Source of the DNA: a virus
DNA length: 38,751 nucleotides
IMG/VR virus record: IMGVR_UViG_3300023174_000343
Location: 1-38,751 of that record
Direction: 5' to 3' (one strand)
The translations under genes and the position numbers were made by a program. Positions 8,969 to 19,843 of the stretch are shown in pieces. Each line of letters begins with the position of its first letter. Positions within the stretch are counted from its first letter, which is position 1. The notes beneath the pieces are model-generated. The model did no database searches. It saw nothing but the letters and a program-made list of their open reading frames with translations, and had not been told where the DNA came from.

Positions 8969-10120
8969 TTAGAATCCGAAAATAATTGAGTAACCAAGAT
9001 AATCTGATTTTACAGATTGGTCAAGGTTGTTAATAGAAACAATACCGTCTAATCGCAATACACCGCAATCATACGAAAGTGGAACTGAGCCACCGACTGA
9101 GCCTAGATCTTCTGTTGCAATAATATTAGAGTCATATACATAACCAAGATCTGACGTTGCTTGCGCTGCGAAAACTGCAGAAGAACCAGAAGTACCAGTG
9201 TATCCAATTTGAATACCACCACTAGTATTAGTAACTTGAATATATGAGCCAGCAGTAATACGATTTAAAGTAAATCCATTTGAGGAATTACCAATTAGAA
9301 TTTGACCGATCTCTGGTAGAGTTGTTTGGCCAGTACCACCCTGAGCAATACCTAATTGAGTAGTCAGTGTTAAACCACTTAGAGTTGTTGCGCCAGCATT
9401 TAATGTGCCAGTTAAAGTAGTATTACCAGTAACACCAAGAGTACCACCAATAGTAGTATTGCCAGTAATCCCCATATCTGAGGAGAACGTACCAGTTGTA
9501 CCAGTAATACCAGCTGCAACAATATTAGCAAGAGTTCCCGTAATTACTTCAGAACTATTCGTTGTATTTAATAAGAAACGAATATCACCAGTTGCTTGTT
9601 TATAACCGATAAAACCGTATCTGTTAGCACCAGAATAATAATTGAATTCTAGACCACGATCTTTACTATCATTAGAAGATAGTGTGCCACCACCAACAGC
9701 AGTACCAATTCTAATAATTGGATCAACAATAGTAGTTACTGTTGAGTTAATTGTTTCAGTAGTACCATTAAGTGTAATATTTCCAGTTACAGTTAATGAT
9801 CCACTAATAGTTGTATTACCAGTAACACCAAGAGTACCACCGATAGTTGTATTACCAGTAACACCAAAAGTACCACCAACAGTAGCATTACCAGTTAGTG
9901 CTAGTGTTGCGCCAGTAAAACCACCTTCACCAAGAGCAAGACTAGAACCTAAGATTACGTTTGTTAGATTTGCGCGAGCAGTCTCATGACCACCAGCAGT
10001 AGAACCATCATGAATGTGTAATGAATTTCTAGTAGTATTAAGTGTGAGTTCTCCACTAGCACCAGTGAAGGTGGTATGTTGGGTACCTGTACCACGTCTA
10101 ACTTGTAATTGAATTGCCAT
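8969..10120 (-). CDS. Tail fibre-like protein (383 aa) with 12-residue tandem repeats
   Basis: A fibre-type virion protein. Its N-terminus (IQLQVRRGTGTQHTTFTGAS...LHIHDGST) is a close relative of that of the 564-residue protein. It continues with tandem 12-residue repeats of the form GNTTIGGTLGVT, then a segment common in aquatic phage fibres (INSTVTTIVDPIIRIG ... DRGLEFNYYSGANRYGFIGY), then more copies of the repeat. The C-terminal part holds DLGYVYDSNIIATEDLGSV (324-342), which resembles the extreme C-terminus of the 919-residue neighbour, and ends in GYSIIFGF. It is 11 bases from the 919-residue gene and 9 from the 960-residue gene, with no room for a promoter, so the three are probably one message. 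Receptor or assembly role is unknown. Confidence 0.78.
   Translation of the reverse strand: MAIQLQVRRGTGTQHTTFTGASGELTLNTTRNSLHIHDGSTAGGHETARANLTNVILGSSLALGEGGFTGATLALTGNATVGGTFGVTGNTTIGGTLGVTGNTTISGSLTVTGNITLNGTTETINSTVTTIVDPIIRIGTAVGGGTLSSNDSKDRGLEFNYYSGANRYGFIGYKQATGDIRFLLNTTNSSEVITGTLANIVAAGITGTTGTFSSDMGITGNTTIGGTLGVTGNTTLTGTLNAGATTLSGLTLTTQLGIAQGGTGQTTLPEIGQILIGNSSNGFTLNRITAGSYIQVTNTSGGIQIGYTGTSGSSAVFAAQATSDLGYVYDSNIIATEDLGSVGGSVPLSYDCGVLRLDGIVSINNLDQSVKSDYLGYSIIFGF
9422..9480 (-). repeat. 36-bp direct repeats, second block (in the 383-aa fibre gene)
   Basis: Two units begin at 9422 and 9458, 36 bases apart, and encode the same GNTTIGGTLGVT-type repeat as the block near 9.8 kb. The sequence ATTACCAGTAACACCAAGAG (plus strand) is identical in the two blocks, about 390 bases apart. 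Confidence 0.7.
9815..9910 (-). repeat. 36-bp direct repeats, first block (in the 383-aa fibre gene)
   Basis: Units start at 9815, 9851 and 9887, each 36 bases apart, so the repeat keeps frame and encodes 12-residue beta repeats. Unequal recombination between units could lengthen or shorten the fibre without a frameshift. Confidence 0.72.
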
Positions 10121-15855: not shown

Positions 15856-16107
15856 TTAAAATTCGCCACCTTCCATATTCTGCGCATCTAGCGTAGTGGA
15901 AGCTGTCCATTTATTTGTGTTTGTTTTGTAAACTAGTATGGACCCGTTTACTTTACCATTAGTAGTTACATCGACATCGGCGATGTTTGACATTGATTCA
16001 ACCACAGCTGGCGCAGCTAAGTTTGTCGATGAAAGTGTAAGAACACCTTCCGAAACTGCTACCGATAATGCTTGGTCTGGGGTTACTACTGCTATTGTAT
16101 CTGCCAT
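15856..16107 (-). CDS. Small conserved virion-type protein (83 aa)
   Basis: The protein ends in NGKVNGSILVYKTNTNKW...TLDAQNMEGGEF. I recognise this pattern (G-S-[IV]-L-V-Y-x-T...[KN]-W, then ...GG[EH][FY] at the C-terminus) from aquatic T4-like phages, where it occurs among fibre genes; its function is not known to me. The start is coupled to the stop of the 111-residue gene in a TAATG overlap, so the two are probably made together. A role as a small fibre-attachment or bridging protein is only inference. Confidence 0.72.
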   Translation of the reverse strand: MADTIAVVTPDQALSVAVSEGVLTLSSTNLAAPAVVESMSNIADVDVTTNGKVNGSILVYKTNTNKWTASTTLDAQNMEGGEF

Positions 16108-16442
16108 TATATTTGTGTTATCTGTGGGGTTATAGTTACGATACCCTCTACAACTCTGGTCTTTGAACCAGCGCCAGAGGTGATCTCCACGTCATATAGC
16201 CATCTCCCTGCGGGAATAGCCGAAGAACTTGAAGCGGATAGTTGGAGTCTTACTTTACCGTTAGCTGCATCGTAGACAGATGCGGTAAATGGGTATGCCG
16301 TGGATGAACTGTAGGACTTTCTCATCTGAGAAGCTACAGTATACCCACTTAAATTCAGAGGTTGTCCGTTGGTCGAACTCACAGTAATTATGTTACTGTA
16401 ATCACTCCCAGCGTCCACGAAAAGATTGCTAATAGTAGCCAT
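16107..16442 (-). CDS. Small Ig-like virion protein (111 aa)
   Basis: This is a beta-sandwich-like protein: ITVSSTNGQPLNLSGYTVAS, then QMRKSYSSSTAYPFTASVYD, then GRWLYDVEIT and VEGIVTITPQ. The layout (G-x-P-L-[DN]-L-[ST]-G-Y... RWLYD[VI]...V-x-G-x-[VI]-x-[IV]-x-P) resembles N-terminal attachment domains of baseplate or fibre proteins (BppU-like) and short virion proteins in aquatic T4-like phages. It carries the only exact TATAAATA besides that of the radical SAM gene, 34 bases upstream of its ATG. It shares a TAATG junction with the 83-residue gene. Confidence 0.75.
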   Translation of the reverse strand: MATISNLFVDAGSDYSNIITVSSTNGQPLNLSGYTVASQMRKSYSSSTAYPFTASVYDAANGKVRLQLSASSSSAIPAGRWLYDVEITSGAGSKTRVVEGIVTITPQITQI

Positions 16443-16509: not shown

Positions 16510-17892
16510 TTAAATTGCAGTGATTGGGATAATCTTTTTGGCTTTACGATTATTTTCTGGTTTACCATTAACCCACCAGAAAACATCTTTACGATCTTCT
16601 CTTTGTGGACCTTCAATGTAGATTGGCGTTAATCCTGTTAAAAATTCTATAGCAATTGCAAATATAACAACATTATCGCTAAATGCATTTGAACAAGATG
16701 CTTCCCATAATGGTCCAGTAAGAAAGAAACACGCACCTCTACATATATGTAAAACTGGACAGTTAGGACATTCTTCTCGATCGCTCCAATGTGTTCCAGT
16801 TTTAATTTCTACATTCGCCAGATCAGAAACGTGACCAAGATGATGCGAAATTCCAGAAGGATTGGTTGAAACAGTAGATACATTTTGACATGTCAACACA
16901 TTACCATTTAAATCAATAGCCATATTATCGCTAAGATCCATACCACATTTTTGCGTCAATGTTTCTTTTCTTCTTCCAGTCTCTAAAGACGCTATAAAAC
17001 TATTTACTTTTGTTTGTATAATAGAATACCTAGAAACATCACCACTTCTTAGTTCAGTAAATGCTTTAATCCTAAAATTTATTTCATCTTCATCAGTTAA
17101 CAATGATGCGCCAATTCCACCCTCATCATAAGCATCGATAAACCCACCTTCTCCAAAGAATAGATATTGCAAATATTCTTCACCAAGGTTTTCTCGTATA
17201 AAATCTTCAAAATATTTTTGTATATCTGCTCTACTTATATTTTTTGCATTTAACATGCAATTCAAAGTCATCTTCCCTAATGGAGCTAGTTTTTTATATG
17301 CATACAAAATACCTTCTTTACTAACTGGATCATTTAGAGGATCTGGTCCACGAACAAATTGACCTGGACCATCATGAGAAACTGCTACTACAAAACCCAA
17401 TTTTTCAAACCAGTCTACTTTTTCAATATCAAGTAAACTACCATTAGTGATAATTAGTTTAGCAGCATTTGGATATTTTTTATGTAATTTTTCAGCGAGT
17501 GGTTTTAATGTTTTCCAATAAACCAAAGGCTCACCACCCCAAAATTCAAATTCTGTGCCCTTACCCAATCCATCTTCTCCACCGTCAAACCATGTTGACA
17601 TATTGTCAACGAATGGATATACATCTTGCGGATTGGTAGAGTCAGAGTGGGGTACGAATCTTTGGTTACAATATTCACATTCAAAATTACAAGAAAGACC
17701 CAACTGTATTTTAACAGTTTTTGGTTTTTTACCTTTTTGTAATTTTACTTGTTCAATAGTTTCCGTGTTTAATTTTGTGTCAACAACAGGGGTACCATCT
17801 TCCCATTTTAATGTACTGTAGTGAGAATCGTAAATAACAAATTTTGATTCACGAGTTAAGGGATGTGCAACAGTAATTTTAAATTCAGCCAT
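16510..17892 (-). CDS. Radical SAM/SPASM peptide-modifying enzyme (460 aa)
   Basis: A radical SAM enzyme with a complete C-terminal SPASM domain, the architecture of peptide and protein maturases such as sactionine synthases, PqqE-like enzymes and anaerobic sulfatase-maturing enzymes. The SAM [4Fe-4S] site is CxxxCxxC at C68, C72 and C75 (LSCNFECEYCNQR), and the GGEP motif is at 119-122. The SPASM ligands fit the standard spacing: C316-x13-G-x4-C335, then C375-x2-C378-x5-C384-x3-C388, then C400, enough for two auxiliary clusters. I start at MAEFKIT (17892) because AAAAGG lies six bases upstream; the ATG 11 codons earlier sits in a hairpin loop without a ribosome site. It has its own TATAAATA promoter and lies among tail-fibre genes. 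The substrate is not shown; the nearby Cys-tipped fibre is the best candidate. Confidence 0.93.
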   Translation of the reverse strand: MAEFKITVAHPLTRESKFVIYDSHYSTLKWEDGTPVVDTKLNTETIEQVKLQKGKKPKTVKIQLGLSCNFECEYCNQRFVPHSDSTNPQDVYPFVDNMSTWFDGGEDGLGKGTEFEFWGGEPLVYWKTLKPLAEKLHKKYPNAAKLIITNGSLLDIEKVDWFEKLGFVVAVSHDGPGQFVRGPDPLNDPVSKEGILYAYKKLAPLGKMTLNCMLNAKNISRADIQKYFEDFIRENLGEEYLQYLFFGEGGFIDAYDEGGIGASLLTDEDEINFRIKAFTELRSGDVSRYSIIQTKVNSFIASLETGRRKETLTQKCGMDLSDNMAIDLNGNVLTCQNVSTVSTNPSGISHHLGHVSDLANVEIKTGTHWSDREECPNCPVLHICRGACFFLTGPLWEASCSNAFSDNVVIFAIAIEFLTGLTPIYIEGPQREDRKDVFWWVNGKPENNRKAKKIIPITAI

Positions 17893-17898
17893 TATATA

Positions 17899-17904
17899 CC
17901 TTTT
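17899..17904 (-). promoter_or_regulatory. Ribosome binding site deciding the radical SAM start
   Basis: AAAAGG is six bases upstream of the ATG at 17892, which selects the 460-residue form over the 471-residue reading that begins inside the upstream hairpin. Confidence 0.65.
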
Positions 17905-17914
17905 CAAATGTATG

Positions 17915-17934
17915 TCTGGGGTCATAGCCCCAGA
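17915..17934 (-). promoter_or_regulatory. Stem-loop TCTGGGG/CCCCAGA in leader of the radical SAM gene
   Basis: A 7-bp perfect stem encloses a 6-base loop; with one bulged T it extends by a further ATG/CAT 3-bp segment. It begins three bases after the TATAAATA element on the minus strand, so its 5' arm would contain or touch the transcription start. The stem core CTGGGG/CCCCAG also occurs in the leader of the 919-residue fibre gene. Confidence 0.6.
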
Positions 17935-17937
17935 ACA

Positions 17938-17945
17938 TATTTATA
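17938..17945 (-). promoter_or_regulatory. Late promoter TATAAATA for the radical SAM gene
   Basis: Exact TATAAATA on the minus strand in the gap after the 259-residue gene, 45 bases before the chosen ATG. It would drive the enzyme with the late structural genes, when fibres are made. Confidence 0.68.
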
Positions 17946-17958
17946 CTATATTATTTTA

Positions 17959-18738
17959 TTAAGATATTGTTTTAATTAATCTTGTAACATGAGTAAAAGA
18001 TTTAAATCCAATTTTAATATCAATGTTATCACCAGCCTCAAGACCTGCTGTTGAAATATTAAATTTACCAGATCCATTTGTTAATTTAACTTTAATTCTA
18101 TCTGGTGTACCAGATATCGGATCTAAGTAAATTGAATGGATATCTGGATCAGTTGAAACATTTACTTCAACCATGCTATCAGCAGAAATTGTTTCTGCAG
18201 TAGTAGCAGTAATAGGAGATATAAATTCTTTCCAATTTTTTGGATCTAAAAGCGTATAAGTTTGGTTATTTAAAGTAACAACAGTAGATTGTGCTACTGG
18301 AACCTGTACTGAGTATTCCATTGTTGTAAAATCATCAGAACTAGATTTTACAAATATTTTAAATGGGATATTCCAACCAGGAAACTTTTCTTGACTAAGA
18401 TAATTATTTTTTCCAATTGATGTATAATCCAAAGAATTAATTACTGAATTTCTATCAAATTCAACTAAACCAGCATTTTTAGAAACAATTAATGTATTAG
18501 ATTGATTTAGAAATGAATCATGAAACGCAAACCAAGATTGTTCTACAAATCTTTGGTTGGCTTTGAATTCATCCAAAGTTATACTAAAATTATAAATGAT
18601 TTCATCACTAACAGTAAGTTTATATGTTAGATTATTTGTATCAATAATAAAATCGTGTTTGATATTATCGAATTCTTCGCTTTGCGTATAACCAACGAAT
18701 CTTTCAGCATATTGTGGTGATTTGTAAATATTAGTCAT
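17959..18738 (-). CDS. Unknown protein (259 aa) between fibre and radical SAM genes
   Basis: I do not recognise this protein. It has no cysteine, no signal peptide and no membrane segment. The N-terminal two thirds are rich in aromatic and charged residues (SQYAERF-type start, LDEFKANQRFVEQSWFAFHD, NYLSQEKFPGWNIPFKIFVK). The last ~85 residues look like an Ig-like beta sandwich (ISADSMVEVNVSTDPDIHSI, then KVKLTNGSGKFNISTAGL). It lies 16 bases after the Cys-tipped fibre gene, has an AAGGAAT ribosome site, and is followed by the promoter of the radical SAM gene. Possible roles are a fibre-associated surface protein or a partner of the enzyme or its substrate; context is the only basis. Confidence 0.7.
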   Translation of the reverse strand: MTNIYKSPQYAERFVGYTQSEEFDNIKHDFIIDTNNLTYKLTVSDEIIYNFSITLDEFKANQRFVEQSWFAFHDSFLNQSNTLIVSKNAGLVEFDRNSVINSLDYTSIGKNNYLSQEKFPGWNIPFKIFVKSSSDDFTTMEYSVQVPVAQSTVVTLNNQTYTLLDPKNWKEFISPITATTAETISADSMVEVNVSTDPDIHSIYLDPISGTPDRIKVKLTNGSGKFNISTAGLEAGDNIDIKIGFKSFTHVTRLIKTIS

Positions 18739-18754
18739 TTTATTTTTTTATTCC

Positions 18755-19843
18755 TTAACAGTTACACTGGCAATTTTGTGCTCGAATCAAGCTGGCTTGG
18801 AAACCTTGTTTCTGGAAGTTATTAACTGTACCGCCACAATTATTGCTGCAGTTCACAAAAGCAGCGCCATCTTGCCATCCACCATAGTTACCCAAGTTAT
18901 TACTGAACTGGCTTAGTGCAGTAGGAGGTCCTTGAATACCACCCCATGGTGCGACAGAAGCATAAGCGACAGAACTAACAATAACAGCACCAGTAGTACC
19001 TTGAACCGAAGTAACAGGAACTGAAACAATAACAGCCCCAGTGTTACCTTGAACTGAAGTAACAGCAGCGGAGATAGTTGGGTTACCAGCAGCGCCATCG
19101 CCGTTAGTAACAGTAATACCAGAGTTACCAGCAGTAATAGTTCTTAGAGCAGCAGTATTAGCAGCAGTCTTAACATAAACACCAGAAGTGCCAGTAAGAC
19201 CACCGATAGCAGATAAGTCACCATCGAATGGTTGAACATCAGTACCAAGAACTAAACCAAGAGTAGAACGAGCAGTAGCAGCATCAGCAGCTGCGTCTAG
19301 CGAACGAGCATATGTTGTATAAGTTGTTACTGCAGCAGTACCAGAACCAGTAAAGTATGGTAGGCGATCAGCAGCAGAAGTCACACCAGCAAGAGCAGCT
19401 AGTTCAGCATCGTATGCCTGAACATCAGAGCCGATAGCAACACCAAGGTTAGTTCTAGCAGCAGAAGCAGAAGTAGCGCCAGTACCACCAGCAGCAACAC
19501 CTAATGTAGATGTAAGAGCAGTAGCAGTAGAAGCATTACCAGAGAGGGTAGCAGTAATAGTACCAGCAGCAAAGTTACCAGAAGCATCACGAGCAACAAT
19601 TGTAGAAGCAGTATTTGCAGTGGCGGAGTTTAATCCGTCTAGCAAGTCAGCGTCTAGACCAGAGCCAGAGCCATCAACAGTAATAAGTTTTGCTAGAACG
19701 TCAGCTGCAGTGTAGCTGGCAGCTGTTTGGCCAAGCGCAATCTGTGTGGATATGTTTGAGAAGTTTGCGTCAACTTCAGCGTTGGTAAGAGGACTACCTT
19801 TGGTAGATCTTAGCGTTAGCGATGGAGCAGTTATAGATGCCAT
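18755..19843 (-). CDS. Tail fibre protein with cysteine-rich C-terminal tip (362 aa)
   Basis: The body is a common phage fibre type: [12 protein letters not shown] near the N-terminus, [95 protein letters not shown], and two copies of VTSVQGxTGAVIVS. All five cysteines of the protein lie in the last 31 residues: C332 and C336 (CSNNC), then C358, C360 and C362 (CQCNC), the last residue being Cys. Such a tip could bind metal, form disulfides across the trimer, or be modified. The radical SAM/SPASM gene lies two genes downstream. A promoter-like ACTAAATA motif precedes it. That it is a fibre is well supported; what the tip does is not known. Confidence 0.85.

What the first reader, a model, noticed from the sequence alone, without database searches (positions are those of the whole stretch)
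16510..19843. Radical SAM/SPASM maturase beside a Cys-tipped tail fibre: candidate phage fibre-tip modification system
Seen: a complete radical SAM/SPASM enzyme (CxxxCxxC at 68-75, GGEP, full seven-Cys SPASM spacing) lies in the fibre cluster. Two genes away is a fibre whose five cysteines all fall in its last 31 residues (CSNNC, then CQCNC at the very end). Known: SPASM enzymes mostly modify peptides and proteins, often at Cys (thioethers) or near a terminus. Inferred: the enzyme may modify the fibre tip, giving a new route to change host binding or stability. I know of no described phage system of this kind, but cannot search.
Basis: partly seen in the sequence, partly recalled or inferred. 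Interest (0 to 1): 0.88.

Follow-up and report, generated by a model that had tools for sequence, protein, structure and literature searches.

The report
Phage enzyme paired with fibre tips
Many phages carry a radical-chemistry enzyme next to a tail-fibre protein that ends in a short cysteine-asparagine tip, and the two are gained and lost together so strictly that the enzyme very probably modifies the tip that meets the host, a kind of virion maturation I found no description of.

Summary
The window encodes, in one operon-like run, a fibre with a Cys tip (…NCQCNC-COOH), an Ig-domain protein, and a complete radical SAM/SPASM enzyme. A DNA search for NCNCNC-stop tips, blind to the enzyme, found this enzyme family beside 56 of 85 in-frame tips and 0 of 35 out-of-frame matches. 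Tips without it lie at contig ends or in three unrelated protein families. The converse search, enzymes in bacterial genomes, gave a tip upstream in 48 of 61 loci. Among fibres homologous to the window's own, tip-bearing ones have the enzyme in 11 of 11 loci. Of 49 tip-less ones, 48 lack it, and the exception has a separate tip protein next door. At least 14 N-terminally unrelated carriers share the tip, so the enzyme follows the tip, not the fibre. In Achromobacter phages the tip is internal but directly followed by a self-cleaving-type Hint domain. The predicted enzyme fold is nearest CteB (thioether-forming), and the anSME catalytic Asp is replaced. I conclude it is a fibre-tip maturase, most likely forming Cys thioethers. 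No reaction, product or phenotype has been shown, and I found no published description.

The parts
16510..17892 (-). Radical SAM/SPASM maturase (460 aa from the conserved MAxFxI start; the longest ORF reaches 17925)
   Evidence: phrog_1802 E=1.7e-62; SPASM TIGR04085 above cut-off; AF2 model pLDDT 91.5, nearest solved fold CteB Z 23.7 over 350 residues
17668..17691 (-). CNFECEYC, ligands of the radical SAM [4Fe-4S] cluster
   Evidence: Sequence; invariant Cys in alignments of 31 and 35 members
16693..16947 (-). Seven-Cys SPASM region (auxiliary Fe-S clusters)
   Evidence: C327, C346, C386, C389, C395, C399, C411 invariant
17959..18738 (-). Middle protein (259 aa): beta-rich N-terminal part plus C-terminal intimin-type Ig domain; module-specific partner, possibly a tip chaperone or cap
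   Evidence: AF2 pLDDT 87.8; residues 174-259 match intimin 1f00, Z 9.5, 2.1 A over 83 residues; homologue near the enzyme in 107 of 133 loci, and elsewhere only in 11 loci that hold a tip but no detected enzyme
18755..19843 (-). Tail fibre (362 aa) carrying the Cys tip; proposed substrate
   Evidence: phrog_697 and several tail-fibre PHROGs; Cys positions
18758..18775 (-). Terminal NCQCNC tip (residues 357-362), proposed modification site
   Evidence: Consensus N-C-x-C-x-C at the C-terminus in relatives
18776..18850 (-). Rest of the Cys-bearing tail (CSNNC and linker, residues 332-356)
   Evidence: Sequence
16107..16442 (-). Small structural gene after the enzyme (context)
   Evidence: phrog_1084 E=2.5e-27; phrog_3304, L-shaped tail fibre assembly
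15856..16107 (-). 83-aa gene next in the run (context)
   Evidence: phrog_13853 E=3.1e-6; the same gene follows in L001-L005
19864..20100 (-). 78-aa virion structural protein before the fibre (context)
   Evidence: phrog_473 E=1.1e-22

Best explanation
The enzyme is a virus-encoded radical SAM/SPASM protein maturase whose substrate is the C-terminal Asn/Cys tip (consensus N-C-x-C-x-C, ending at or near the carboxylate) of a neighbouring tail fibre or short tip protein. Proposed mechanism: the [4Fe-4S]/SAM centre makes a 5'-deoxyadenosyl radical that takes a hydrogen from a tip residue, and Cys sulfur, held at an auxiliary cluster, bonds to that carbon. The likeliest product is one or more Cys thioethers, plausibly Asn-Cys across N-x-x-C, the spacing of the known ranthipeptide NxxcA, which the tip repeats in tandem. 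The Ig-domain protein made between them probably holds or caps the tip. The result would be a rigid, redox-proof knot at the fibre end that meets the host. SHOWN: anatomy, complete cofactor motifs, and reciprocal co-occurrence of tip, enzyme and middle protein across unrelated carriers. INFERRED: that the enzyme acts on the tip (about 0.88), that the product is a thioether (about 0.5), and that the effect is on receptor binding or tip stability (about 0.5).
For: Tip to enzyme: 56/85 in-frame NCNCNC tips against 0/35 out-of-frame matches, always same strand and downstream; 38/50 whole contigs have PF04055. Enzyme to tip: 48/61 bacterial loci (42 terminal, 6 before Hint) against 3/61 in control frames. 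Natural deletions: 11/11 and 48/49, the exception having its own tip protein. Fourteen carrier families by N-terminus. 631 of 798 Cys lie in the last 40 residues, which make up 17% of carrier length. Tip directly before Hint in JWF, 2-1, L243, L280, L281, L283, L284, L286. Fold nearest thioether-forming CteB. Enzyme-retrieved tips have Asn before the first Cys in 45/51 and x = Asn 65%, Ala 13%, Asp 11%; Asn20-Cys23 and Cys-Asp beta-thioethers are known (PMC8326336).
Against: No mass spectrum, activity or knockout exists. Genomic linkage could in principle reflect co-transfer of a host-recognition cassette with another substrate; the middle protein is nearly as tightly linked. Several loci have the enzyme family without a recognisable tip (L272, L277, L282, L276, L287). 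Three non-fibre families end in NCNCNC without the enzyme (L054, L051, L092). Loci in each set are related by descent and some duplicate one another, so p-values are descriptive. The CteB match is by overall fold; no thioether-maturase family model reaches its cut-off. Asn is only about two-thirds of the x positions, so an Asn-specific product is not required.
Confidence: 0.7

Rival explanations
1. The enzyme oxidises tip Cys to formylglycine, as anaerobic sulfatase-maturating enzymes do, giving the fibre reactive aldehydes.
For: anSME is among the nearest sequence and fold relatives, and the JWF gene is annotated that way.
Against: The anSMEcpe base D277, next to C276, aligns with Gln347, nearly invariant in the family (the role of D277 is from my own knowledge). 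None of 99 tips has the (C/S)x(P/A)xR sulfatase motif. The anSME model scores 48 against a cut-off of 349.
Confidence: 0.08
2. The enzyme epimerises or otherwise changes Asn/Cys in the alternating tip (D-residues, C-C bonds, other oxidation) rather than forming thioethers.
For: The strict two-residue alternation suits alternating-configuration peptides; SPASM enzymes include cyclophane and other chemistries. The epimerase EpeE is a more distant fold match (Z about 13).
Against: EpeE ranks well below CteB, ChlB and anSME; Cys, not Asn, is the most conserved part of the tip.
Confidence: 0.2
3. The tip is a metal-binding or disulfide tip, and the enzyme modifies another protein of the cassette (for example the Ig-domain protein) or does something else.
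For: Some tips are also His-rich (HLDTNHHFDPHHHHNNCTNCNCNC). Iron-binding HxH fibre tips (PMC11705849) and disulfide-locked tails (PMC10811340) are known. The middle protein co-occurs in 107/133 loci.
Against: Plain metal or disulfide tips need no radical SAM enzyme, yet tip-less homologous fibres lack it. The middle protein has few Cys, is divergent (20% mean column identity) and was not found in the Hint-type loci L035, L036, L243, L280, L281, L284, L286.
Confidence: 0.12
4. Coincidental linkage: enzyme and tipped fibres travel in the same host-recognition cassette without functional contact.
For: Fibre regions of marine phages are hot spots for cassette exchange; radical SAM cassettes were noticed there (PMC7029224).
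Against: Fourteen carrier families, several gene orders, phages and prophages of different kinds, tip plus Hint, and concerted loss all keep the tip-enzyme pair.
Confidence: 0.05

Closest known systems
Ranthipeptide/SCIFF maturases (CteB, PDB 5wgg/5why; PapB; NxxcB)
   Same: Radical SAM plus SPASM; CteB is the nearest solved fold (Z 23.7 over 350 residues); substrates are Cys-rich and cross-linked to Asn, Asp or Thr (PMC8326336)
   Different: Substrate here is a fibre or short virion-type protein, not a leader-core precursor peptide; no maturase model reaches its cut-off; no RRE recognised
Anaerobic sulfatase-maturating enzyme (anSMEcpe, 4k36-4k39)
   Same: SPASM enzyme acting on a Cys/Ser of a full-size protein; close fold and sequence match
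   Different: Catalytic Asp277 position is Gln; no CxPxR target; TIGR03942 not met
QhpD (quinohemoprotein amine dehydrogenase maturation)
   Same: SPASM enzyme making Cys-Asp/Glu thioethers in a structural protein subunit
   Different: TIGR03906 39.8 against 453; different substrate, bacterial not viral
phrog_1802 'radical SAM domain-containing protein'
   Same: The enzyme belongs to this orthologous group (E=1.7e-62)
   Different: The group is listed as 'other' with no substrate or role given
Iron-binding HxH fibre tips (T4 gp37, alterophage R22Y) and disulfide-locked tail of phage Milano
   Same: Special side chains at fibre tips or tail joints
   Different: No modifying enzyme; here a dedicated radical SAM gene goes with the tip (PMC11705849, PMC10811340)
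Fibre chaperones or caps (Alteromonas phages V22, A5)
   Same: A gene directly after the fibre gene, in the place of the middle protein
   Different: No homology tested; the middle protein has an intimin-type Ig domain and is tied to the tip and enzyme

Membership tests
Radical SAM superfamily | CxxxCxxC binding the SAM [4Fe-4S] cluster in a TIM-barrel fold | tested here: met
   CNFECEYC, Cys invariant in both family alignments; fold matches; PF04055 29.0 against 29.5 for this member, above cut-off in 31/50 tip-bearing contigs
SPASM domain proteins | Seven-Cys auxiliary-cluster motif | tested here: met
   TIGR04085 32.1 > 27; seven Cys invariant
Anaerobic sulfatase maturase (anSME) | Equivalog model TIGR03942 | tested here: not met
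   48.1 against 349.45
Anaerobic sulfatase maturase (anSME) | Catalytic Asp (D277 in anSMEcpe) and CxPxR-type target | tested here: not met
   Aligned residue is Gln347; 0 of 99 tips carry the motif
PapB-type ranthipeptide maturases | Equivalog model NF047865 | tested here: not met
   47.1 against 340
SCIFF maturases (CteB) | Equivalog model TIGR03974 | tested here: not met
   31.4 against 425, although CteB is the nearest solved fold
Thioether-forming maturases (functional class) | Formation of a Cys S-C bond in the substrate | not testable with these tools
   Needs mass spectrometry or NMR
RiPP systems | RRE domain or RRE partner that binds a leader peptide | tested here: inconclusive
   No PqqD/RRE family among the matches of the Pfam and NCBIfam scans; the model's N-terminal strands fall inside the CteB match range, but an RRE was not examined alone
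RiPP systems | Short precursor peptide cleaved from a leader | tested here: inconclusive
   Carriers are mostly 81-1082 aa fibre-like proteins with the Cys run at the C-terminus, unlike a short precursor; proteolysis itself not tested
QhpD | Equivalog model TIGR03906 | tested here: not met
   39.8 against 453
phrog_1802 | Profile match over most of the protein | tested here: met
   E=1.7e-62, residues 37-451
Hint-processed proteins (JWF-type variant, not the window) | Hint module beginning with Cys right after the tip | tested here: met
   PF05203 E=3e-12 in JWF, weaker in L243 and L284; autocleavage not testable here

The most novel reading that the evidence does not exclude
A widespread, undescribed class of virion maturation: phages encode a dedicated radical SAM/SPASM enzyme that builds a tandem Asn-Cys thioether knot at the very C-terminus of otherwise unrelated fibres and small spike proteins, a chemically new kind of receptor-contacting tip, with an Ig-domain cap, optional hydroxylases, or a self-cleaving Hint domain that exposes the tip.
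Probability: 0.45. Interest if true: 0.93.

Novelty: new variant of a known kind. Interest (0 to 1): 0.86.

Why it matters
It would be, as far as I could find, the first radical SAM maturation of a virus particle, and it sits on the part of the phage that touches the host. It gives a likely substrate to a viral enzyme group known only as 'radical SAM domain-containing protein', and it suggests a protein target for some of the 2OG-Fe(II) oxygenases of marine phages, whose roles are largely unknown. It is directly testable by one mass-spectrometry experiment on phages or prophages already in culture, and would show how phages make covalently locked tips that disulfide reduction cannot open.

Tried and rejected
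NSNSNS* was meant as a matched control tip, but only 1 of 58 stretches was an in-frame C-terminus, so out-of-frame NCNCNC matches and tip-less homologous fibres served instead; a different, weakly similar radical SAM gene (29-34 bits) next to some of those stretches is unrelated. The idea that the tip belongs to one fibre family was rejected (14 N-terminal families). Single-linkage clustering of whole bodies gave 6 groups because of shared fibre repeats and was set aside. Formylglycine chemistry was rejected on the D277 position. The JWF protein in the middle position is not a detectable homologue of the Ig protein (hhalign probability 0.2%). Known small-tip and exception families had no PHROG match. 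Promoter and terminator scans of the region were at chance level. Asn frequencies were discarded as biased by the NCNCNC search pattern and recomputed on enzyme-retrieved tips.
Full report
WHAT IS THERE. On the minus strand the window encodes three consecutive genes: a 362-aa tail fibre (19843-18755), a 259-aa protein (18738-17959) and a radical SAM/SPASM enzyme (17892 or 17925 to 16510), with gaps of 16 and 33 bp. The setting is a tailed-phage structural module; the record is a 38.7-kb virus record, which may be a fragment. The enzyme has CNFECEYC, WGGEP and all seven SPASM cysteines, every one of these Cys invariant in an alignment of 35 members of 29-69% identity to it. SPASM model TIGR04085 is met (32.1 against 27), while no equivalog maturase model is (best: anSME 48 against 349, PapB 47 against 340). 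The fibre's only five Cys are residues 332, 336, 358, 360 and 362 of 362.

TIP TO ENZYME. 85 were true in-frame C-termini. A profile of the enzyme family hit 56 of these 85 loci and none of the 35 out-of-frame matches (304 kb), always on the same strand and downstream, at 12-19 bp, 0.8-1.1 kb, 1.4-1.9 kb or up to about 3.6 kb (overlapping by 133 bp in two loci). A Pfam search of 50 whole contigs found a radical SAM gene in 38. In-frame tips without the enzyme fall into two groups: loci cut off less than 1.5 kb after the tip, and three unrelated protein families (L054/L103/L137 type, L051/L098 type, L092) whose contigs hold no such enzyme. Many loci are close relatives, so these are counts, not independent events.

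ENZYME TO TIP. The closest viral relatives (about 60-69% identity) have a tip gene upstream wherever the contig reaches: NCNCNC, NCVCNC, NCACNC, and in L009 three small tip proteins in a row. The more distant L014 (46%) has a short ORF ending CDCD. In bacterial genomes (Limnohabitans, Burkholderia, Magnetospirillum, Thalassobacter and others, 28-50% identity; many look like prophages but I did not map prophage limits), 48 of 61 loci with at least 4 kb upstream have a Cys tip there on the same strand, against 3 of 61 in control frames; by 70% identity clusters it is 25 of 36.

NATURAL DELETIONS. I fetched fibres homologous to the N-terminus or stalk of the window's own fibre. Those with a Cys tip have the enzyme in 11 of 11 countable loci; those without lack it in 48 of 49. 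The exception, L299, has a tip-less fibre followed at once by a separate 128-aa protein ending TNCNCNCACNCNCACNCNC, then a 382-aa protein in the middle position, then the enzyme. L304, where a tip-less fibre precedes the enzyme, has a 15-Cys protein directly after it. The tip sits on 14 N-terminally unrelated carriers of 81 to 1082 aa. The enzyme therefore follows the tip.

HINT VARIANT. In the cultured Achromobacter phages JWF and 2-1 the order is fibre, 240-aa protein, enzyme (44-45% identity). Their fibre does not end in Cys; instead RQNCNCDCNCNCSC or RANCNCDCNCSC runs straight into a Hint module (CFPAGT..., PF05203 E=3e-12 in JWF). The same junction occurs in L243, L280, L281, L283, L284 and L286. 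If Hint self-cleaves as known ones do (own knowledge), the tip becomes C-terminal there too. In seven of these eight loci the usual Ig-domain protein was not found.

THE TIP. Among 51 enzyme-retrieved tips (not biased by my NCNCNC pattern), Asn precedes the first Cys in 45, and the residues between Cys are Asn 65%, Ala 13%, Asp 11%. In all 99 tips, 631 of 798 carrier Cys lie in the last 40 residues, and 72 of 99 tips end exactly with the run.

THE MIDDLE PROTEIN. AlphaFold2 gives a confident two-part beta protein (pLDDT 87.8); residues 174-259 match the Ig domain of intimin (1f00, Z 9.5, 2.1 A over 83 residues). A homologue is near the enzyme in 107 of 133 loci; elsewhere it occurs only in 11 tip-bearing loci where no enzyme was detected at the threshold used, most of them cut off before it. 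Its place directly behind the fibre suggests a tip chaperone or cap (inference).

CHEMISTRY. The enzyme model (pLDDT 91.5) is nearest CteB (Z 23.7 over 350 residues), then ChlB (21.2) and anSMEcpe (20.1). The anSME base Asp277, next to Cys276, aligns with Gln347, and no tip has a sulfatase-type motif, so formylglycine is unlikely. CteB-type enzymes make Cys thioethers; NxxcA has a Cys23-Asn20 beta-thioether and freyrasin Cys-Asp ones (PMC8326336). The tip is a tandem of N-x-x-C spacings. I therefore propose Asn/Asp-Cys thioethers, at about even odds; epimerisation or another oxidation is the main rival.

WHAT IS KNOWN. Ten searches of an open-access library found no paper linking a SPASM enzyme to fibre tips. 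PMC7029224 notes radical SAM cassettes in the host-recognition cluster of pelagimyophages, and PMC5332604 a T4-like genome with 12 radical SAM genes. Subscription papers and preprints were not covered, so novelty is provisional.

LIMITS. All evidence is comparative. Nothing here shows a reaction, a product or a phenotype. Loci L272, L277, L282, L276 and L287 carry the enzyme family without a recognised tip and may act on something else.

Noticed in passing
L006:8228-10022, L009:5714-7562, L062, L144:666-3204, L146:970-2808: One to three 2OG-Fe(II) oxygenase-like genes (PF13759/PF13640) lie in the tip-enzyme cassette in a subset of phages: one type near the enzyme in 40 of 133 loci, another in 28 of 133. 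They may hydroxylate the same tip proteins.
   Followed up: partly
L005:11673-12620, L002:7313-8257, L299:11576-12523: A DctP-type TRAP solute-binding protein (PF03480 E=2.5e-43 in L005) follows the enzyme by one gene and begins without an evident signal peptide; a similar gene that does begin with a signal-like stretch lies near the enzyme in the Bacteriovorax-type locus L272:3072-4079.
   Followed up: no
Records of L047 (33.9 kb) and L079 (84.5 kb): Each virus record holds eight radical SAM matches, far more than the single tip enzyme; their roles are unknown.
   Followed up: no
L054:2300-2908, L051:1835-2389, L092:4896-5450: Three unrelated phage protein families end in NCNCNC but their contigs have no such enzyme: either another partner or an unmodified Cys tip.
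   Followed up: partly
L292:4527-9074 (Parasutterella muris): Variant cassette: three adjacent fibre-like proteins rich in CSYCSYCTYC-type CxxC repeats, an Ig-like middle protein and two radical SAM genes, suggesting a related system with different Cys spacing.
   Followed up: partly
L272, L277, L282 (Bacteriovorax-type genomes): Members of the enzyme family sit beside other radical SAM genes (L272, L277) and no Cys-rich tip was found, so the family may also have a cellular role.
   Followed up: partly
window 8969-10120, minus strand: A 383-aa protein with the Mtd_N domain (major tropism determinant N-terminus, E=2.8e-12), another probable receptor-binding protein of this phage.
   Followed up: no
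L006:9498-10022: PHROG names its best family 'DNA endonuclease V' (phrog_274), whereas Pfam matches 2OG-Fe(II) oxygenase at its cut-off: possibly a misannotated PHROG.
   Followed up: no
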